Shown here in pieces: positions 34,251 to 44,156 of a stretch of 64,000 bases of DNA (its first letter is position 1; each line of letters starts with the position of its first letter). The DNA comes from Stieleria bergensis. GTDB lineage: Bacteria; Planctomycetota; Planctomycetia; Pirellulales; Pirellulaceae. A program made the translations under genes and the position numbers. The stretch lies in NCBI GenBank assembly GCA_007745635.1, contig CP036272.1, positions 3,492,358-3,556,357 on the forward strand, written 5' to 3'. The notes beneath the pieces are model-generated. The model did no database searches and was not told the origin of the DNA. It was given only the letters and a program-made list of their open reading frames with translations.

Positions 34251-35026
34251 CGTCTGGCCTCCATGCCTGAATCTGAGTGCGAAAACTTGGTGCGTTTGTT
34301 GTTTTCCTTTCAGCAGCGTCACACGATTGCGTGAACAAAGCTTCCAAGGGTTCCGAAAGGGATCTGGAATGCCGCAACACAAAGTGCTGACAACCGAAGC
34401 CTTCGACAACGTTCGCGTCCTTGCGAGTGTTTTTCAACGACCGCCAACTGAAGTCAATTCACACGCTGTGAACCGATGAGATTGGCGGTCAATCCATGTC
34501 GCTGGAACCGGCTAACCGCGAAACCATTCGCGTTTCGATCTCTCAACGACAGTGGCAATTGTTCGCCTGACAAGTTTTGGGTCAATAGAATTCACCAAAT
34601 TTTTTTTGCGACCTCCGTTTTACCGTGTTTTCAGGATTCCGAGACGTTTACACCTGCTTTTACCCGGCCATTCCGTGCTAGCAAACAAATCTTTGGCAAT
34701 TCGAACCTGACCACAAAAAACGCCCAATTGGGTTGCAATTCGAAGCCGAAGGACACCTCCTGACGCAGATTTCTGACCTATGTTTCAAATGGCGTTCTTT
34801 CCCGAGCAGTTGTGTTCTGCTCGTTGAGTGTGTCACTGAACTCGGCGATTCTCGCCGGGGCAATCAGACACGGTTAGAACTTTTTGGGGACGAATTCGAC
34901 GACTGGCCAGCCACGATTGTGCAGTCAATGCTCAATGCAGCGTAACTGTCAAACGAAGGAAAGGATGGTTTCGGTACCAGGAGGCACGCGAATTTATAGG
35001 GCCCACGGCGAATTCTGGAACAGCAG
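34251..35026. other. Intergenic region of about 775 bp
   Basis: Between the Mur ligase (- strand) and the small membrane protein. Frames such as 34476-34763 have no family and no good start. AT-rich tracts lie near 34600 (AATTTTTTTTGC) and a TTTATAGGG stretch near 34994. I see nothing else. Confidence 0.3.
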
Positions 35027-35164
35027 CTAACTGCCTGCCAGTATCACGCAGAGGCCGACGACAAAAGCCACAAGGACGATGGCACACCCAATGTCCTTCA
35101 TCTCATCACGCCAGCTCCGAGGTGGCAGCGGATTGGGAGGCGCATCCTCTTGTGCTGTGTCCAT
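35027..35164 (-). CDS. Small single-pass membrane protein
   Basis: 45 residues from ATG 35164: an acidic, Pro-rich start (MDTAQEDAPPNPLPP), then one hydrophobic segment (IGCAIVLVAFVVGLCVIL) at the C-terminus, giving a tail-anchored shape. The frame is open further upstream but lacks coding character. It is divergent from the ECF sigma factor gene with about 109 bp between. Not recognised; the composition supports a real gene only moderately. Confidence 0.45.
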   Translation of the reverse strand: MDTAQEDAPPNPLPPRSWRDEMKDIGCAIVLVAFVVGLCVILAGS

Positions 35165-35273
35165 AGACACAAAGCGAGATCCGCAAGACCCGTCATGCGC
35201 GAAATCTCGGGAATCTCTGAAATCCGCGCATAGTCGCTGGGCGGATCTCGCTTCTAAGGTTGAGGGCACATAC

Positions 35274-35843
35274 ATGGATTCTGCGACATCACGATTGGAG
35301 GCGAGAATTACACGGTTGCGGCCCGTCCTGTTGACGCTGGCCGAGGCATTGATCTCTCCTGCGCTGCGAGTCGAGTTGGATGCATCCGATCTTGTCCAGC
35401 AGACTTTGATGGAAGCTCACCAGCAGTCGGAGGCACTTGCATCGTTCGATGATGGCTCGTTCTTTGGCTGGCTGCGAAAAGCGCTTCGGCACAACGTTCT
35501 CGACGCGGTTAAACATCTCAGCACTCAGAAAAACAACGCCGCACGTCGAGTCCGGGCCGCAGACATCGACGATTCATTTGTCCGTCTCGAAGAACTGCTC
35601 GTTGCCGACGATACGTCGCCCAGCGAGATTCTTCAGCGAAACGAGCAAACCGCACGTCTACTTGCAGCGATCCAGGAATTGCCTCGCAATCAAAGAGAAG
35701 CGGTGATCCTGAAACATCTGCGAGGATGTTCGCTTCGACAGTTGGCGGAAGAGCTTGGGCTATCAGAAACAGCCACTGCCGGATTGCTGCATCGTGGACG
35801 AAAACAACTTGTGGAACGGCTGGAGCATTGTGGCGATGCGTGA
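35274..35843 (+). CDS. ECF sigma factor 1 (planctomycete type)
   Basis: 189 residues from ATG 35274, with GAGGG about 9 bases upstream; the frame is open to 35079 but lacks homology there. Region 2 is ALRVELDASDLVQQTLMEAHQ and region 2.4 GWLRKALRHNVLDAVKH. Region 4 is IQELPRNQREAVILKHLRG followed by LAEELGLSETATAGLLHRGRKQL. It resembles the planctomycete/verrucomicrobia sigma factors linked to Ser/Thr kinases. Its last 8 bp overlap the kinase start (ATGCGTGA), so the two are translated together. It should direct RNA polymerase to a small regulon. Confidence 0.9.
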   Translation: MDSATSRLEARITRLRPVLLTLAEALISPALRVELDASDLVQQTLMEAHQQSEALASFDDGSFFGWLRKALRHNVLDAVKHLSTQKNNAARRVRAADIDDSFVRLEELLVADDTSPSEILQRNEQTARLLAAIQELPRNQREAVILKHLRGCSLRQLAEELGLSETATAGLLHRGRKQLVERLEHCGDA

Positions 35844-36678
35844 ATCAACAGAATTCAAGGACAATTCGGTCTTAACAGACGAGCAGTTGGCAGAACTCGA
35901 GCGTGCTACAGAGCAGTGTGGCAGCACTCTGACGACAAACATCGGCAACGCCGAACGTGACGAGTTCCATCATTGCTATTCATTGGTGGACTCCCTGGCA
36001 TCTCCTGTTCGCAATGCGGTGGTCGAGATTTCGAAGCCGCCAGTTCTTCCTGACTACGACGATCTTCAGGAGATCGGTCGTGGCGGGATGGGGATCGTCT
36101 ATCGTGGTCTTCACAAGAAGACTCGACGAATTGACGCCATCAAAGTGATCCGCCCGGATCGAGTATCCACTGTCGCAGGTGCTCATCAGCGCGAGTTACA
36201 GCGTCAGTTGCAACAGGAGGCTCAGCTTGCGGCTCGTGTTGCGCATGAGCATATCGTTCCGGTGTATCAGGTTGGTGAGGTAAACGGCTGCCCCTGGTTC
36301 TCCATGCAGCTCGTTGAAGGACAGAGTCTGCGCGACCTCATGTACGAAGGCCCGATATCGCCGCAAAGAGCGGCGACGCTCATTGAGCAGATAGCCCGCG
36401 CCGTTGACAGAGTTCATCGACACGCCGTTCTGCATGGAGACATCAAGCGTTTAGGGAGAAACGCAGCCTGCTTGATGAGGACCAACGGCGGCGAGCCACC
36501 TAGGGGAATGCGTGCCTCTGCAGCGTTTTTGTACGTCGCCGAGAACGCTCACGTTCCCCGTTCACTTCTTGCCGAAATGCCGCCGCAGCGGCGTAAATTG
36601 CGAAAATCTTTCGCGAATCGATGTATAGACATTGGAATCTCGCGCAATGTACGGGTGAGGACCATCCATGGAACATGA
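35836..36678 (+). pseudogene. Truncated Ser/Thr protein kinase
   Basis: 280 residues from ATG 35836. The kinase lobe starts at DDLQEIGRGGMGIVYRGL with the glycine-rich loop, then the VAIK-equivalent lysine in DAIKVIR. A helix-C and hinge region follow (EHIVPVYQVGEVNGCPWFSMQLVEGQSL). The catalytic loop reads AVLHGDIKR, then diverges: residues after about position 210 (RLGRNAACLMRTNG...) no longer resemble a kinase. The DFG metal loop and C-lobe are missing, and HRD is HGD. In intact planctomycete kinases of this type a long C-lobe and WD/TPR domains follow. It is likely non-catalytic: a pseudogene, or a regulatory remnant kept for sigma factor control. Confidence 0.82.
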
Positions 36679-37189
36679 AGCGACACTACGAATACTCGTA
36701 TCCGACCGTGCCCGGTTATTGGCGTACGTTTGGTCGATAGTGCGTGACGAACATGCCGCCGAAGACCTGTATCAAGAGTTGCTTGTCGTTGCGATGGGAC
36801 GCGTCGAGACGTTCGGCGATTCCGTTCACCTCCTGAAGTGGTCACGAGTGACGCTCCGAAATAAGGCATTGGAGCATCTGCGTCGGCAGCGGAAGGCATC
36901 CTTGCCAATGGCTGGAGACGTACTCGACTTGCTGGAAGATCATTGGGCCGAATACGACTCGCTTGATTCCGCCGAAATGACCGAAGCACTTCGGCACTGC
37001 CTTTCTCGATTAACCTCCAAAGCTCGTCAGCTTGTCGAGTTGCGCTATGAACAGGGATTACGTGGGACGGAAATCGCACAAGCGACCGATCGCAAGACAC
37101 ACTCCATCTACGTCGCACTGAGCAGAGCTTACAAGACGCTCGGGGAGTGCATTGGCGGAAGAATTCCAAAGGAAAAGCCGCATGCCTGA
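36668..37189 (+). CDS. ECF sigma factor 2
   Basis: A 173-residue ECF-type sigma factor starting inside the last 11 bp of the kinase frame, with GGTGAGG 8 bases upstream. Region 2: RLLAYVWSIVRDEHAAEDLYQELLVVA. Region 4: LTSKARQLVELRYEQGLRGTEIAQATDRKTHSIYVALSRAYKTL. Its stop overlaps the FecR-serpin start by 8 bp (ATGCCTGA), the same arrangement as sigma 1 with its kinase. This gives the classic planctomycete pair of ECF sigma factor plus FecR-like anti-sigma protein. Confidence 0.9.
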   Translation: MEHEATLRILVSDRARLLAYVWSIVRDEHAAEDLYQELLVVAMGRVETFGDSVHLLKWSRVTLRNKALEHLRRQRKASLPMAGDVLDLLEDHWAEYDSLDSAEMTEALRHCLSRLTSKARQLVELRYEQGLRGTEIAQATDRKTHSIYVALSRAYKTLGECIGGRIPKEKPHA

Positions 37190-39179
37190 TCCGATCAATC
37201 CAAGACTGGCCGAACTGTGTCAGTTATTTGCCGATGACGCGCTCGACCCGTCGCAGGAAGAGGAATTCAACACCCTGCTACGGAATGATGCTTCCATACG
37301 TGATGCGTTCGTTGCCTACTGTGTTCACTCTCAGCTACTGAAAGAAATGCTGAAACGTGACAAAGCATCTGACATCGAACCGTCAGCGAAAGCAACGTTA
37401 CCGGTCCAAAAGCAGATCTCACACAGGTTCGTCGCGCTCGCGTCGATTGCCGTCATCACCGCGAGTCTTCTCGTCGCAGTCGCGGTCTGGCACTATTGGC
37501 CAGCGACTCCCGAGACTCTGATCACGGAAGGGGATTCCAGGCCAGAATCTCCGGTAGAGCTAGTGGCCGCTCATTGGAAAATCACGCCGACCGGCGAGGC
37601 GGACTATGAATTCATCGAGCCAACGCTCGTTCGCCTCGATCGTGGCGAATTGTTCGCCGAATGGATTGTCGGGGACGATCCAGATCAGCCATCGCGCAAC
37701 GGCGAACCGACGGAACTACGCATCACTACCACGGAAGGCGAAGTGATCGCCCGAGACACACGTTTCATTGTTGGAACCCACCAAACGAATTCAGAAGAGG
37801 AGAAACCGATGTTGAGATCACTAACGCGAGTGTTTGTGCTTTCCGGCCTAGTTACTTTGACCACGTCGTTGGGCAGCATCGAAGGAACATCAGGTGAACT
37901 GTTGGCGGCGGAAGTGGACAAGGCCCCCTCCAAGCTGACGATGGAGGCGAATAGTGATTTCGCCTGGGATCTTTATGCTCAAATAGCTAAAGAAGACGAA
38001 GACGGCAATCTCTTCTTCTCGCCTTATTCGATCTCCAGCGCGTTGGCGATGACCATGGAAGGGGCACGTGGTCGGACGGCCCGCGAAATGGGTGACGTAC
38101 TACAATTTCCCGACGCTGTGCGGCGCATTGGCGTTGACGACCAACGGATCCCCTGGGAAACGGCCAAAATTCACACCGGTATGGGCGCCATTAACAATCG
38201 GCTCAACCGCGCTCAGAAGCCGTACGCATTGAAAGTGGCCAACGCGCTGTGGGGCGAGCAATCCTCCCGCTGGCGCCCGGAGTTTCTGAAAACGCTCGAC
38301 GAGCCGTACGGAGCCACATTGAGGAAGGCTGACTTTGTTCGCAGCAGCGAACGCGAACGCCAGCGGATCAACCAATGGGTTGAGGATCAGACCGAACAGA
38401 GGATCAAAGAGCTTTTGCCTAAGGATCCGCCTGTTATTACGGGGAACACACGGCTGGTCCTGACCAACGCCATCTACTTTAAAGGCAATTGGTCGCAGCG
38501 GTTTGATGCGAAGCAAACCAACGACATGCAGTTCACGACGGCCAGCGGAGAAAAGGTTACTGTGCCAACCATGTGGTTCGATCCCGGCAATGCAGATAAC
38601 AAACGTAACACACTCAACGGCTACTTTCCTTTCGGCTACGCCGCGTTCGATGCCCAAGGAAAGAGCACACGTAACCGAGGCCGAACTCACTTCGAAATAC
38701 TCGAGATGCCCTATGCCGGCAACGAATTATCGATGTTTGTCTTGCTGCCAACCAAGCACGATGGAGTGCCTTCGCTGGAACAGCAACTCAATCGTAGAAA
38801 TTTGGAGCAGTGGCTCAGCACGGTAGAAAAACGAGAAGTGGAGGTCTATTTACCAAAATTCAAAATGGAAACGGAGTTTGACTTGGTTCCAACACTGAAG
38901 GCACTAGGCATGCGGACAGCATTTGATGGGGCGGATTTTACGGGCCTCTGCGAGTCGGGCGGTCTGTCTATCTCTGCCGTTCGTCACAAAGCCTTCGTCG
39001 AGGTTAATGAAGTCGGCACCGAAGCCGCTGCTGCAACCGCAGTTGTGGCTGCTGAATCGGCACCCCCACCCACTCGCACCTTCAAAGCGTTGCGGCCATT
39101 TGTCTTCCTGATCCGAGACAATACAACCGGCAGCATTTTGTTTGCCGGACGGATGATGAAACCAACAGGTGAGCAGTAA
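37182..39179 (+). CDS. FecR-like anti-sigma protein fused to a serpin
   Basis: 665 residues from ATG 37182. Residues 1-60 are the planctomycete anti-sigma N-terminus (NPRLAELCQLFADDALDPSQ; LLRNDASIRDAFVAYCVHSQ). A membrane segment follows (about 83-105), then a FecR-type beta domain ending ITTTEGEVIARDTRFIVGTHQ. A second leader-like segment starts at residue 210 (MLRSLTRVFVLSGLVTLT), preceded by a good ribosome site (GAGGAG, 6 bases before ATG 37809). A complete serpin follows (about 252-660) with FFSPYSISSALAMTMEGARGRTA and a hinge near 610. The serpin may be translated on its own from 37809 as a secreted inhibitor, or as part of a fused membrane protein. Confidence 0.88.
   Translation: MPDPINPRLAELCQLFADDALDPSQEEEFNTLLRNDASIRDAFVAYCVHSQLLKEMLKRDKASDIEPSAKATLPVQKQISHRFVALASIAVITASLLVAVAVWHYWPATPETLITEGDSRPESPVELVAAHWKITPTGEADYEFIEPTLVRLDRGELFAEWIVGDDPDQPSRNGEPTELRITTTEGEVIARDTRFIVGTHQTNSEEEKPMLRSLTRVFVLSGLVTLTTSLGSIEGTSGELLAAEVDKAPSKLTMEANSDFAWDLYAQIAKEDEDGNLFFSPYSISSALAMTMEGARGRTAREMGDVLQFPDAVRRIGVDDQRIPWETAKIHTGMGAINNRLNRAQKPYALKVANALWGEQSSRWRPEFLKTLDEPYGATLRKADFVRSSERERQRINQWVEDQTEQRIKELLPKDPPVITGNTRLVLTNAIYFKGNWSQRFDAKQTNDMQFTTASGEKVTVPTMWFDPGNADNKRNTLNGYFPFGYAAFDAQGKSTRNRGRTHFEILEMPYAGNELSMFVLLPTKHDGVPSLEQQLNRRNLEQWLSTVEKREVEVYLPKFKMETEFDLVPTLKALGMRTAFDGADFTGLCESGGLSISAVRHKAFVEVNEVGTEAAAATAVVAAESAPPPTRTFKALRPFVFLIRDNTTGSILFAGRMMKPTGEQ
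37711..37870 (+). repeat. Leader cassette copy 1 (FecR tail, RBS, signal peptide)
   Basis: A 160-bp segment that matches 39297-39456 without any insertion or deletion; by hand count 136 of 160 bases agree (about 85%). It codes for the end of the FecR domain, a ribosome site and the first 20 residues of a signal peptide. The offset is exactly 1586 bp. Confidence 0.85.
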
Positions 39180-39296
39180 TCTTCGATGAATATTGACCTG
39201 CGGGACTGCTGCACGCTGACAGTTCAAAACGGTTGCCCCGAATCGCTCACTGCCAGCACGTTGATACGACGTTGCAGAGACGTTGCGCGATTCCAC

Positions 39297-39456
39297 CGGA
39301 ACTGCGCATCACCACGCCCGCAGGCGAAGCGATTGCCCGAGACACACGCTTCATTGTTGGAAACCACCAAATGAATCGAGAACAGGAGAAAGCGATGTTG
39401 AGATCACTAGCGCGAATGTTCGTGCTTTCCGGCCTGGTGACTTTGACCATGGGGCT
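39297..39456 (+). repeat. Leader cassette copy 2 (FecR tail, RBS, signal peptide)
   Basis: Second copy of the 160-bp segment at 37711-37870. Here it precedes the HEAT-repeat protein. The FecR-tail part (ELRITTPAGEAIARDTRFIV) has no FecR gene attached upstream, so this half is a remnant. Confidence 0.85.
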
Positions 39457-41902
39457 GGTGGCACCGCTACACGCCGCGCCGCCCAAGCCGACCCCCGAAG
39501 ACCAGCGGGAAGGCATGAAGCGGGTCGATGCGTTTGGCAAAATGATAGTGGGGCGGGTTTTCGACGCGCGGGAAGTGAGCCCCAAGCGCGCCGACGCCGT
39601 CCGCCAGAGCAATCACGACGAGGTCGTGGCCTTCTCCATGACGTTGAAAACGTCAGAAGAAAGGCTCCATTTCGCAAACATGCTGCTCGATGATATCGTC
39701 GAAATCCTAACCGACAGGACCCTGGCCGAGGTGGCGGGCCCGCTGCTTAAAGATCAGGACTTGCGGGTCCAGAATTGGGCATTCCTGGCCATCCACAAGA
39801 GCAAGTCCGGTGCCCGGTACGCCAAGGAACTGATCGCGCTTGCGGGTAAGGAAGATCCGCCGAAACAATGGCTGACGCATTTGATTTGGGCGATGAGGTC
39901 CTCCGACCACGAGGCATTCACTCAGCCGCTGGTCAAGTTCACCCGCCACGCCGACACAGAGATTCGTCGCGAGGCGGTCATCGCGTTGCCTCATCTCTCC
40001 CCGGAGCAAACCCTCAAGGTCACGCCTCAACTGCTAAATGACAAAGACCGAGTTATCCGTCACTTGGCAATCCGTGCCCTGGGCCGCTCGCGTGTTCCCG
40101 AAGCCTTCCCGTTGATCAGGCCCTTGCTCACCCACAAGTCGTGGCTCATCCGCGAAGAAGGCATCGAGGCACTGGTAGATCTCACCAAGACGAGCGACTG
40201 GAAGACCAACCCGGTGATGCTCAAGAAGGTGCGGGATGCGTTCGGCCCTCAACTCCGCAAGGCGCTGAGTGATGAATATCGCAGAGTCCGCGAGAAAGCC
40301 AGCGAAACCATGAGAGTCTTAGGCATCCCACGCAAGGCCAACAAAGCCCGTGACTCCGCCTCAACCACAACATCAACAGGCAATGCCGCCGAAAACATCG
40401 GCGTCGACATCGACGACAATGGCACGAAAACGGACGAGAAGGAGCTGCCCATCGCAAAGGCCAAGCTCGCCGAAGCGGCAGCGGTGGCGGACACCTTCAT
40501 CAAGTTGGCCGCGAAGAGCGATCAGCCGCTGACCGCCCAGCAGCTTCAACCGTTGGTCAAGCAGCTGTGGGTTGATTGGCACGAGGCAAACGAAGCTGTG
40601 AAAGCATTTGTGAAGATGGGGCCGAAGGCTGCCGCGGCGGTGGATGCCATCCTGCCGGGCACGATCGACGACTCGGCGCCCAAAAAATGGACATTCGGCA
40701 GTTCTGCCCCACTCGGCGAGTTTCATCGCGAGGCTCTCAAAGCGATCGGCGCGGCGGCGGTACCCGCGCTTTGCAAGGTGGTCAATGATGAAAACGCCAA
40801 ATTCGAGCTGCGCGAACAAGCCCAACGGGTGCTTAGTGATCTGCGGCCAAGGCCGGAGGATCGTGAACTCTACATCGACACCATGCTGGCACAGCGAGAC
40901 GAGGGCAACTCGTTGAGTACTTTCGCGATCGCAGCTTTGGCCCAAATGGGCTACCGCGATCTTTGGATGGCGATCCCCATTTTGTCGGACGCGGAGAGGC
41001 TGCGGGATCCTATGTACGGCGATCTGCCACTGGCGTTGCATTACATCAGGCCGGTGATCGATCAGGCCATCAAGGACGGCGTACCGGTGAAGTCGTGGTG
41101 GACGCCGAAGCTGCGTGATCGCCTGTTGGCGTCACTTGGTGATGCGAACGCATCCATGTTCGGCCCGTCGCACAAAATCATCGCGTTATTCGTTCTGGCA
41201 GGAGATGATGCGATCGTGCCGTATTTGCTCGACTATGTTCGCAATGGAAAGGCTGGCGGCTTGGCAGCCGTTTCCGCTTGGGCACTTGGGGAACTGAATC
41301 GAAAGGAAGCCTTGGAAGATGTGCTTGATCTGTTAACCCGCATTCCGCTCGACGACCTCTACCAGACAGAATTTCGGCCGATAGCCGCCGCTGGAAAGCT
41401 AGGCGGTAAGGAAGCGGTTCCCGCGTTGATCGAAATGCTCAAGTCCGACCGCGGTGCAGCTGAACACGCAGCTTTGGCCTTGGCACGGATCGGCGACAAG
41501 CGCGCCGTCGAACCCGTCAAAGCTTTATTCAAACGCAGCCTGAAAGGCGGCCCAGCGTTGCAGCACACAATGACCGCGATGGTCATGTTCGGCGAGGACG
41601 ATGCGGTGGACCAGACGATCAAACAAGTTTTTAGACCCGGTCGAAACTGGGATCGCATCGGCCCGGAACATGTGATCGAAGCCATCCTCGACCTGAAGGA
41701 CATCAAACTACGGCATCACGGTATTCGACTCATCATGCAAGGCACCTTCAACCCTCCAAAGGGCATCCATCACACGGTCCTGCCGGACATTCGCGAGGTC
41801 TTCGCTAAGCGGTTTGGTCTTGAAGAAAACGGCTTCATCGAACCTCATGAATTTAGACAATGGTGGGAAATGAATTGGACACGCTTCGGTGAAGGGGAAT
41901 GA
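39395..41902 (+). CDS. Secreted HEAT-repeat protein
   Basis: 835 residues from ATG 39395, preceded by CAGGAGAAAGCG and giving a signal peptide (MLRSLARMFVLSGLVTLTMG, then LHAAPPKP). The frame is open to 39233, but that part is a FecR-tail remnant. The rest is an alpha-solenoid of HEAT/PBS-type repeats (LLKDQDLRVQNWAFLAIHK; RREAVIALPHLSPEQ; IRHLAIRALGRSRVPEAF; EHAALALARIGDKRAVEPV), with an acidic Ser/Thr-rich linker near 310-350. The C-terminal 100 residues (GTFNPPKGIHHTVLPDIREVF) differ. Such solenoids bind proteins. It is the second secreted cargo after the duplicated leader. Confidence 0.82.
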   Translation: MLRSLARMFVLSGLVTLTMGLVAPLHAAPPKPTPEDQREGMKRVDAFGKMIVGRVFDAREVSPKRADAVRQSNHDEVVAFSMTLKTSEERLHFANMLLDDIVEILTDRTLAEVAGPLLKDQDLRVQNWAFLAIHKSKSGARYAKELIALAGKEDPPKQWLTHLIWAMRSSDHEAFTQPLVKFTRHADTEIRREAVIALPHLSPEQTLKVTPQLLNDKDRVIRHLAIRALGRSRVPEAFPLIRPLLTHKSWLIREEGIEALVDLTKTSDWKTNPVMLKKVRDAFGPQLRKALSDEYRRVREKASETMRVLGIPRKANKARDSASTTTSTGNAAENIGVDIDDNGTKTDEKELPIAKAKLAEAAAVADTFIKLAAKSDQPLTAQQLQPLVKQLWVDWHEANEAVKAFVKMGPKAAAAVDAILPGTIDDSAPKKWTFGSSAPLGEFHREALKAIGAAAVPALCKVVNDENAKFELREQAQRVLSDLRPRPEDRELYIDTMLAQRDEGNSLSTFAIAALAQMGYRDLWMAIPILSDAERLRDPMYGDLPLALHYIRPVIDQAIKDGVPVKSWWTPKLRDRLLASLGDANASMFGPSHKIIALFVLAGDDAIVPYLLDYVRNGKAGGLAAVSAWALGELNRKEALEDVLDLLTRIPLDDLYQTEFRPIAAAGKLGGKEAVPALIEMLKSDRGAAEHAALALARIGDKRAVEPVKALFKRSLKGGPALQHTMTAMVMFGEDDAVDQTIKQVFRPGRNWDRIGPEHVIEAILDLKDIKLRHHGIRLIMQGTFNPPKGIHHTVLPDIREVFAKRFGLEENGFIEPHEFRQWWEMNWTRFGEGE

Positions 41903-42056
41903 TCCGGTGTTAAAGAAAATGGCTCAACCCAGACCACGCCCGTAAGGCGGTTACATCAATTCCATTCGCAATTGGTGACGTCATCAGATTCTGTTGAACT
42001 TCTCACAGCCCGTCGCGTCCAAACCTTCACCACACGAAAACGCGAATACCATCGAT

Positions 42057-43298
42057 ATGTCAGAAAAGCCTGTGCCTCGGGATGATCAACAACCTTCCAA
42101 TCAAACGCAAGCAGCCACGGCTACCCAGCCTCGCTGCAGTTCGCTGGCGATTGTTACATCAGGCGTCGTTGCCCTGTTGGCAATCATGTCGGTGATGGCG
42201 GTAAGCAACACCGGACCGTTCGCCGTGTCGCAACAATCGGACCATGCCTACGCCGCACCGCCAGTTCTAAAGAGTCAGTACACCGCTAAGCAGATCGCCG
42301 CTGCGAAAAAGCATGAATCGTATGCCACGTTTTACAACGCGCAATTGATCGTCGTCGGCAAAGTTGCGAAGGAGCAGGGCCCGGTCGCCGCGATTCCTGG
42401 TGCGGAAAACAGACCACCCCAGTTTCAATGGACGCTCTACCCGACTCAATCGTTGTACATCAATAGTCAGTTTGCCAAGAATTACGAGAGCTACGATCTG
42501 GGTCGCGTGGCGGATGCGGATCTGAAATCGACACCTTACCTGCTTGCCCAAAGTTTCGGCAATCGGCAAACCTATCTCGGCCGTGCGGATAAAGACATTA
42601 TCCAGGTCGCGGCCATCGCGATCGAACAACACACCCATGCTGACGCCGTGCGACTGCAACAGGCGAAGACAAACCCGGAAAAGAATCCGCTCTTCAAAAT
42701 CGTCCAGGATGCCGAAAATCTGGCGACCGTTGATGTGGTGGACGGCAGGGTCGGCGTTACGGTCTTCGACGCGAAAGGCAATGTCATTTCTCAGACCAAG
42801 TCGCTCAAGAAGGGCCAACACGTCGCCATCTTGTCAGCGAATTTCCGTGGCAATCTCCCCAATGACGCCCCGGTAGGAAGTTTCTTTTGGGTGGATGAGT
42901 CGCAGCAATCGCCGGTCGAATCGCAACCCGTGCTGGTTGTCTGGGAACTCAAGCAGGGCAAAGTTCACGCAACGCATTGGGCCACCATGGATGAAGCAAC
43001 CCTGCGCATTGCCGCCGCCGCCTTGAAACGCGATTTCAAAAGGTTCGCCATTGACGCGAAGGGGCCACTGAGTTTTAGCAGTCGCGGGTCGTTTGGCCCA
43101 GGCGGACAAGACCACCACGACCATGACCACCACGACCATGACCACCACGACCATGACCACCACGACCATGACCACCACGACCATGACCACCACGACCATG
43201 ACCACCATGAACATGCCGCCCCTGACTATGACGACAAGAAGAACAGCCATGGCGGCGATCCCGAAGCGGACAATCCTGGCGTTAAAGATTCGGAGTGA
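42057..43298 (+). CDS. Membrane-anchored protein with a His/Asp-rich metal-binding tail
   Basis: 413 residues from ATG 42057; the open frame from TTG 41994 adds 21 non-coding-like residues. A hydrophobic segment (about 30-53, LAIVTSGVVALLAIMSVMAV) anchors or exports it. The middle is a soluble domain of unknown family (KIVQDAENLATVDVVDGRVGV; GSFFWVDESQQSPV). From about residue 352 it has seven DHHDH-type pentapeptides (six DHHDH, the last DHHEH) encoded by 15-bp tandem units at 43110-43214. Such runs bind zinc, nickel or copper. Function otherwise unknown. Confidence 0.78.
   Translation: MSEKPVPRDDQQPSNQTQAATATQPRCSSLAIVTSGVVALLAIMSVMAVSNTGPFAVSQQSDHAYAAPPVLKSQYTAKQIAAAKKHESYATFYNAQLIVVGKVAKEQGPVAAIPGAENRPPQFQWTLYPTQSLYINSQFAKNYESYDLGRVADADLKSTPYLLAQSFGNRQTYLGRADKDIIQVAAIAIEQHTHADAVRLQQAKTNPEKNPLFKIVQDAENLATVDVVDGRVGVTVFDAKGNVISQTKSLKKGQHVAILSANFRGNLPNDAPVGSFFWVDESQQSPVESQPVLVVWELKQGKVHATHWATMDEATLRIAAAALKRDFKRFAIDAKGPLSFSSRGSFGPGGQDHHDHDHHDHDHHDHDHHDHDHHDHDHHDHDHHEHAAPDYDDKKNSHGGDPEADNPGVKDSE
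43110..43214 (+). repeat. 15-bp coding tandem repeat (DHHDH), seven units
   Basis: Seven units of GACCACCACGACCAT or a close variant run in frame inside the metal-binding protein. Units are almost identical at the DNA level, suggesting recent expansion by slippage or unequal crossing-over, and copy number may differ between strains. Confidence 0.9.
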
Positions 43299-43373
43299 GA
43301 CAAGGCCGTTTGACTTGACAATCTCCTTGTGGCGAGTGTTGCGACCTCTCGAACCAAGCTGACGGACACCAAA

Positions 43374-43460
43374 AGTGGTGACAGGATTTGAACTCCGTAA
43401 ATCCCTTCCAGGCAGTGGTTTCAAGCAATTGCCCTTCATCGCCAGCTGAACCGTGTCGCC
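43374..43460 (-). pseudogene. Remnant resembling tRNA-Ser (UGA)
   Basis: Read on the minus strand: the ends GGCGACA and TGTCACC could pair as a 7-bp acceptor stem with one mismatch. The anticodon loop CTTGAAA (UGA anticodon) and GAGTTCAAATCC with the T-loop TTCAAAT follow in the right order. The anticodon stem and T-stem do not pair cleanly, and a variable-arm-like stretch (TGGAAGGGATTTACGG) sits between. This looks like a decayed tRNA-Ser. It is a pattern call without a covariance model. Confidence 0.35.
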
Positions 43461-43519
43461 TGTTTGAACTGACTGAGTTGCCATGAGTCGTTCGCGTAAC
43501 TCGTTCTCATCAAAAGAGA

Positions 43520-43553
43520 AACAGCTCGCCGCGAATCAACGCGACGAGCTGTT
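43520..43553. terminator. Strong hairpin, possible bidirectional terminator
   Basis: Arms AACAGCTCGCCGCG (43520-43533) and CGCGACGAGCTGTT (43540-43553) pair with one mismatch around a 6-nt loop. TTTT follows on the + strand and TCTCTTTTG follows on the minus strand. It sits about 220 bp after the His-rich gene and 50 bp before the next gene. Confidence 0.6.
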
Positions 43554-43601
43554 TTGAATTCAAGTCGAGGGGGCAAGATTTGAATTGATGGAGACAGTGA
43601 G

Positions 43602-44156
43602 ATGTTAACCAGCCCCAATGCAAATGCCCCGTCACAGAAACTGGACACCGGTTTTGGATTTGACATCGCCGATGCGGTGGTGGAACGTTTTCGACGCAAA
43701 ATGTGGCGCCGTCAGATTCGTGCTTCGCGTTATGCGCACGCACATTCCGATGCCGTGATGATCCACTTGGCGATGACCATGACGACGATGTTTGGATTCT
43801 ATTGTTGTCTAGGAGCGCTTAATGGGTTGATGGCGTGCTGGATTGCCCTGGTCCAAATCTTGGTCGTGTCGGCGTGGGCACCTTGGCGAACGGCATTGGC
43901 TCACGGGCTGCTGTGCGGACTTGTCCTGTGGATGGGCCTAGAGAGTTGGGCGCCGATCGTACTGGGCCCCGGTGCCCTGTTCGTTGGTTTATGGGTCAAC
44001 ACCAATACCTACGCTCGATTTCGCAGTCGCTGGTACAGTTCGGGGATTCCGAGCCGACCGCTGAGCCTGTTTCAGATTTTGACGCGAGCGGTGTTTGCCA
44101 CGCCCACACTGATGGTCCTCTTCGAGCGACGAATCCGTCAGTCACGGGCTAGATGA
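43602..44156 (+). CDS. Membrane protein of unknown function
   Basis: 184 residues. A polar N-terminus (SQKLDTGFGFDIADAVVERFRRKMWRRQ) precedes three or four hydrophobic segments (about 51-75, 78-95, 101-118, 120-135). A basic tail follows (ARFRSRWYSSG, FERRIRQSRAR). No family recognised. It lies alone between the terminator-like hairpin and the 630-bp gap before tkt. Confidence 0.6.
   Translation: MLTSPNANAPSQKLDTGFGFDIADAVVERFRRKMWRRQIRASRYAHAHSDAVMIHLAMTMTTMFGFYCCLGALNGLMACWIALVQILVVSAWAPWRTALAHGLLCGLVLWMGLESWAPIVLGPGALFVGLWVNTNTYARFRSRWYSSGIPSRPLSLFQILTRAVFATPTLMVLFERRIRQSRAR

What the first reader, a model, noticed from the sequence alone, without database searches (positions are those of the whole stretch)
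37711..39456. Duplicated FecR-tail/leader cassette in front of two unrelated secreted proteins
A 160-bp segment (FecR end, ribosome site, signal peptide start) occurs at 37711-37870 before the serpin and at 39297-39456 before the HEAT-repeat protein, collinear without gaps and about 85% identical by hand count, while the proteins behind it are unrelated. In copy 2 the FecR part is only a remnant. This looks like cargo exchange: a leader and its regulatory upstream being reused with new secreted genes, possibly kept under one ECF sigma factor.
Basis: seen in the sequence. Interest (0 to 1): 0.75.

Follow-up and report, generated by a model that had tools for sequence, protein, structure and literature searches.

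The report
Anti-sigma serpin gene with internal start
One bacterial gene runs without a stop from a predicted membrane regulator into a serpin (protease inhibitor) and carries a ribosome-binding motif and an ATG inside, so it likely makes both a tethered and a free inhibitor; a worn second copy of that inner segment now heads an unrelated gene, where it would likely act as start and export signal.

The parts
36668..37189 (+). ECF sigma factor gene; its last 8 nt overlap the start of the FecR-serpin frame
   Evidence: PF04542 and PF08281; best NCBIfam match TIGR02989, E 8e-34, 116.8 bits, under its cut-off of 124.55
37182..39179 (+). one open frame of 665 codons: predicted anti-sigma helices, TM, FecR domain, then serpin
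   Evidence: P0001
37194..37367 (+). predicted N-terminal helical anti-sigma domain (residues 5-62)
37431..37487 (+). predicted TM helix (residues 84-102)
   Evidence: 19-residue hydropathy 2.63; helix 81-105
37542..37934 (+). predicted FecR domain, residues 121-251, which includes the so-called leader
37711..37872 (+). repeat copy 1 (codons 178-230: FecR strands, inner ribosome motif, inner ATG, next FecR strand)
37798..37802 (+). inner Shine-Dalgarno motif AGGAG, 6 nt before the inner ATG
37809..37811 (+). inner ATG in frame with FecR and serpin
   Evidence: Met at this place in 17 of 19 FecR-cargo frames
37944..39164 (+). serpin domain (residues 255-661) with hinge GTEAAAATAV
   Evidence: PF00079 positions 1-370; PDB serpins, E down to 1.7e-76
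39297..39458 (+). repeat copy 2
39384..39388 (+). Shine-Dalgarno motif AGGAG kept in copy 2
39395..41902 (+). HEAT-repeat gene (835 aa) starting at the copy-2 ATG; first 28 residues read like a signal peptide
   Evidence: P0009; HEAT families; hydropathy 1.81 at residues 5-23

Best explanation
The 160-bp repeat is a 53-codon stretch near the end of the predicted FecR domain in a single open frame that also encodes a serpin; it holds a ribosome-binding motif and an in-frame ATG and likely lets that frame yield two proteins, a membrane-tethered anti-sigma-FecR-serpin and a free secreted serpin, while a diverged second copy would likely serve the HEAT gene only as start site and export signal. 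Shown from sequence: the single frame and its conservation, the inner motif and ATG above background, the two copies. Predicted: in the long product the segment folds as the last FecR strands and the serpin lies outside the membrane, behind the FecR domain. Inferred: the tethered serpin would act as an extracytoplasmic protease bait or sensor whose cleavage or large conformational change alters how the N-terminal domain holds the neighbouring ECF sigma factor; the short product, begun at the inner ATG, would use the hydrophobic strand as a signal peptide and be the free inhibitor. Copy 2 would be an old, partial FecR duplicate whose start module was joined inside the leader of a HEAT gene.
Against: No expression or translation data. 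2 of 19 FecR-cargo frames (L038, L107) lack the Met, so the inner start is not universal; L107, first found without a FecR model, is one of them, and its FecR part is by eye (no Pfam FecR). Fusions were gathered with models that contain this stretch, which may inflate the Met and hydropathy contrast; frames within a class are related, not independent. The 5-nt motif result rests mostly on sigma-serpins (8 of 8); L044 scores only 3. A duplex-energy score put just 1 of 6 sites (L024) in the best 5% of positions, the other five between the 5% point and the median. The window's inner leader is only moderately hydrophobic (under 1.4 over 19 residues). The window's protein did not reach Pfam FecR at E <= 1; the FecR model has pTM 0.47 and the serpin part of the full model is of low confidence. 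Sensing is inference only.
Confidence: 0.62

Rival explanations
1. Plain fusion: only the long anti-sigma-FecR-serpin protein is made; the inner Met and AGGAG are by-products of the linker residues.
For: Frame uninterrupted in all 15 found; L038 and L107 do without the Met; the stretch is part of the FecR fold; duplex energies at the site are unremarkable in 5 of 6.
Against: Motif enrichment at this ATG in three architectures, including sigma-TM-serpin where the linker is unrelated; Met 17 of 18 versus 2 of 24 in ordinary FecR; copy 2 keeps motif and ATG with most of FecR gone.
Confidence: 0.2
2. Two coupled genes without a stop between them: the free serpin is the real product and the read-through fusion is tolerated noise.
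For: Inner ribosome motif and Met; stand-alone serpins are common in the phylum: 115 of 392 genomes have serpins and most printed frames are of 400-500 aa (list cut).
Against: Uninterrupted frame in the 15 FecR-serpins and 8 sigma-serpins found, some about 40% identical; a FecR fold is kept across the junction; L038 and L107 keep the fusion without the inner Met.
Confidence: 0.13
3. Travelling leader cassette: a leader with its regulatory upstream moves between secreted genes.
For: Two copies before unrelated coding regions; FecR ends before serpin and before DUF3160.
Against: Two copies in the genome; no DNA match in 13 other genomes of the genus; the HEAT pairing was found only here; strong hits in 4 of 241 family genomes, all serpin; no longer flanking repeat, only short chance matches for the spacer.
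Confidence: 0.05

Closest known systems
FecR/PupR family of ECF anti-sigma regulators
   Different: a serpin follows the FecR domain where PupR and FecR (recalled) carry their STN/signalling end; inner ribosome motif and ATG
Serpins, e.g. SerpinB3, conserpin; prokaryotic serpins
   Same: full PF00079 domain with hinge GTEAAAA as in the inhibitory motif ExGTEAAAA quoted in PMC8233489 (passages; x there is E/K/R, here V)
   Different: one chain with an anti-sigma factor; the passages that I saw mention membrane-anchored prokaryotic serpins but no sigma or FecR link
ECF sigma factors with fused extra domains (ECF41, SnoaL_2: titles in the reference list of PMC8103513, passages)
   Same: regulator and extra domain in one chain, as in the sigma-TM-serpin frames found here
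   Different: those extensions are soluble and cytoplasmic (recalled); here a TM segment leads to a serpin predicted to lie outside
Bacterial genes with an in-frame inner start giving two products (recalled class, no call)
   Same: one frame, inner ribosome motif and ATG
   Different: here the inner start would turn a FecR strand into a signal peptide and free a secreted domain

Membership tests
FecR-type anti-sigma regulator | FecR beta domain | tested here: met
FecR-type anti-sigma regulator | N-terminal sigma-binding domain | tested here: inconclusive
FecR-type anti-sigma regulator | single TM and ECF sigma gene next door | tested here: met
   window; sigma-like frame by eye in L024, L025, L028, L029
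Serpin, inhibitory type | complete serpin domain with hinge motif | tested here: met
   PF00079 1-370 of 370; GTEAAAATAV at residues 612-621
Serpin, inhibitory type | inhibits a protease | not testable with these tools
   needs an assay
Gene with in-frame inner translation start | ribosome motif and start codon above background, conserved | tested here: met
   exceptions L038, L107 (no Met), L044 (weak motif); duplex energies unremarkable in 5 of 6
Gene with in-frame inner translation start | both products made | not testable with these tools
   needs proteomics or ribosome profiling
Signal peptide (copy 2, HEAT) | n-region charge, h-region, cleavage site | tested here: inconclusive
   two R, hydropathy 1.81, HAA at 26-28 by eye; no dedicated predictor
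Mobile leader cassette | many copies with varied cargo in one or near genomes | tested here: not met
   2 copies in own genome, none in 13 genus mates at DNA level

The most novel reading that the evidence does not exclude
A serpin has been built into ECF sigma-factor signalling at least twice, once behind a FecR anti-sigma factor and once behind the sigma factor itself, each time as one frame with an inner start: the long chain is a membrane-crossing protease sensor that reads serpin cleavage as a transcription signal, the short chain is the secreted inhibitor it calls for, and in the FecR version the same 20 residues are a beta strand in one product and a signal peptide in the other.
Probability: 0.35. 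Interest if true: 0.88.

Novelty: new variant of a known kind. Interest (0 to 1): 0.68.

Why it matters
[quoted passage not shown] A serpin in one chain with an anti-sigma factor, and separately with a sigma factor, suggests a testable role: sensing hostile proteases and answering with free inhibitor. A segment that is a folded strand in one product and an export signal in another would be an unusual double use of sequence. It also suggests how a secreted orphan gene can acquire a working start from a regulator fragment.

Tried and rejected
Leader-as-cassette: rejected after the single frame, the copy count and the structure. Recent tandem duplication of copy 1: not favoured; over 53 residues copy 2 differs from copy 1, P0002, P0003, P0004 by 12, 12, 9, 12, while copy 1 differs from those relatives by 4, 5, 5, and copy 1 has changes (positions 7, 11 of the stretch) where copy 2 keeps a state of the relatives. 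Spacer 39180-39296: short chance matches only within the window. Rfam on 35000-44000: one sub-threshold hit, far upstream. Promoter/terminator scan of 36400-39600: no more than shuffles. HEAT ancestry: no relative at E <= 1e-20 in 146 other genomes, where at most 6 candidates a genome were scored, nor at E <= 1e-10 among the 7997 candidates scored, so its original leader could not be seen. Low mismatch around the start (1 of 26 versus 23 of 136) is only p 0.07. Duplex energies did not single out the inner start: 1 of 6 sites reached the 5% point. Strands free of charged residues: 4 of 18 fusions, 1 of 24 controls, no clear contrast. First thought that the hydrophobic stretch is a second TM helix: set aside. 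Literature: FecR+serpin 7 papers, serpin+planctomycetes 11, anti-sigma+serpin 13 (12 listed), ECF sigma+FecR+Planctomycetes 1; by listed titles and abstract starts none is about such a fusion; DUF3160-or-FecR gave 2,393 papers of which I saw 10. That holds for this library and these terms only.

Full report
OBSERVATION. The two segments align without gaps over 162 bases, 138 identical. In the 7.1-Mb genome the 301-base query 37600-37900 finds itself, copy 2 at E 1e-47, and nothing else better than E 1. The 13 other genomes of the genus have no DNA match to 37183-37980 at E <= 0.001. What follows the copies is unrelated: serpin and HEAT repeats.

WHAT COPY 1 REALLY IS. The open frame 37182-39179 runs from an ATG that overlaps the end of an ECF sigma gene (36668-37189) straight through the 'FecR tail', the 'ribosome site' and the 'signal peptide' into the serpin. 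Eight database proteins, the window's own among them, match residues 90-255, all with a serpin after it (only proteins of 0.55-1.75 times its length could be found). Genome searches added L024 (a Blastopirellula MAG; L027 is the same place), L025, L028, L029, L038, L044 and L107, so 15 distinct FecR-serpin frames, none interrupted; L107 is FecR by eye, Pfam saw only its serpin. In L024, L025, L028 and L029 a sigma-like frame lies directly upstream (by eye). A search of 147 relatives gave matches in 9 genomes: strong in G000, G048, G073, G037, marginal (E 3e-4 to 9e-4) in 5.

THE INNER START. Between GTxF and that strand, 13 of 15 FecR-serpins and 4 of 4 FecR-DUF3160 frames have a Met; L038 and L107 do not. 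In one search, before L107 was found, this was 17 of 18 against 2 of 24 ordinary FecR (Fisher 1e-8), and the strand was more hydrophobic (1.92 versus 0.55). Caution: those fusions were collected with models that include this stretch. The better test is DNA: for 18 frames with an inner ATG, a Shine-Dalgarno match of at least 5 nt at proper spacing stands before that ATG in 13 (sigma-serpin 8 of 8, FecR-serpin 3 of 6, FecR-DUF3160 2 of 4), against 12 of 276 other in-frame ATGs of the same frames (Fisher 2e-12); at least 4 nt: 17 of 18 against 47 of 276; L044 scores 3. By resampling of mean match length each class gives p <= 7e-5; related frames are not independent. Against this, a duplex-energy score put only L024 of 6 sites in the best 5% of positions; the window's copy 1 (-9.1) just missed its 5% point (-9.5), and copy 2, L025, L028 and L029 lay further towards the median.

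A PARALLEL. Serpins occur in 115 of 392 phylum genomes; most printed frames are 400-500 aa (list cut). Of 18 long frames that I fetched, 3 are FecR-serpins (two of them L038 and L044 again), 8 are an ECF sigma factor continued in frame by a TM segment and a serpin, and 7 are ordinary serpins in long open frames, by eye. Pfam confirms sigma regions 2 and 4 plus serpin in the 5 of the 8 that I scanned. All 8 come from 5 genomes of one family and have a Met with a motif of 5 nt or more right before the TM segment. Among the 30 serpin loci L077-L106 only L084 and L097 show a sigma hit, in the serpin's own frame, and none a FecR hit (flanks about 1.5 kb, small query set). So a serpin has been tied to ECF signalling in one chain in at least two different ways.

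OTHER CARGO. The phylum search with the FecR-strand alignment hit 7 of 392 genomes; outside the window's own genome its 8 matches are 2 serpin (G210), 4 DUF3160, one FecR with a carboxypeptidase-regulatory-like domain and no Met (L046), and one left unread (L043). DUF3160 (PF11369, E 4e-64 to 3e-101 in L039-L042) is in 42 of 392 genomes; of 30 loci read by eye 4 are FecR-fused, 7 (L129-L135) have a short TM-anchored front, L153 a zinc-finger-like front, the rest have other or unread fronts. A family-wide search (241 genomes) gave strong hits only in G000, G048, G073 and G037, all serpin; 78 genomes pass E 1e-5; of the weaker hits I read 8 loci: ordinary FecR proteins, two of them (L160, L161) with a VIT-like domain by eye and no inner Met. 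So what follows FecR has been exchanged over deep time, by fusion.

COPY 2. It keeps AGGAG, ATG and the strand codons, with about 32 FecR codons in front; the sigma gene, TM and most of FecR are absent. The database gene call for the HEAT protein starts at this ATG (P0009). Its first 28 residues read as a signal peptide ending HAA, with a 19-residue hydropathy of 1.81, while the same stretch of copy 1 stays under 1.4. The join lies inside the leader, so the HEAT gene's own c-region may have been kept (inference). Copy 2 is closest to P0003 (9 of 53 differences), not to copy 1 (12), so it is old or came from another lineage; which, the data do not tell.

MECHANISM. Shown: the frames, motifs, copies. 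Predicted: fold and topology, serpin outside, anti-sigma domain inside. Inferred: free serpin from the inner start; tethered serpin as protease bait or sensor acting through FecR. E. coli FecR is processed stepwise, ending with RseP (PMC8144685, abstract), which makes a protease-facing domain at this place plausible but proves nothing.

VERDICT. A new variant of a known kind (FecR-type anti-sigma regulator) with an unusual partner and a likely inner start; the reported duplication is a by-product of it.

Noticed in passing
window 35836-36675: Ser/Thr kinase frame broken off at HGDIK (Pfam Pkinase positions 1-125 of 263) with an unrelated tail, behind a second ECF sigma gene 35079-35843; no other match to 36430-36680 in the genome at E <= 0.001.
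   Followed up: partly
window 43107-43226: 15-bp tandem repeat coding a His-Asp-rich tract in frame 41994-43298, weakly like the zinc protein ZrgA (E 9e-6, under cut-off).
   Followed up: no
window 39395-41902: 835-aa HEAT-repeat protein with no relative found at E <= 1e-10 among the 7997 candidates scored.
   Followed up: partly
L108, L110, L111, L112, L113, L115, L117, L120: ECF sigma factor, TM segment and serpin in one open frame, with inner Met and ribosome motif.
   Followed up: yes
L112: An extra, unidentified stretch of roughly 200 residues sits between TM segment and serpin in one sigma-serpin frame.
   Followed up: no
L129-L135, L153: DUF3160 proteins with short TM-anchored, anti-sigma-like fronts, by eye.
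   Followed up: no
L160, L161: FecR ends continued in frame by a VIT-like domain (name by eye), without an inner Met.
   Followed up: no
L038, L044 (genome G210): One genome carries two diverged FecR-serpin genes, one with and one without the inner Met.
   Followed up: no
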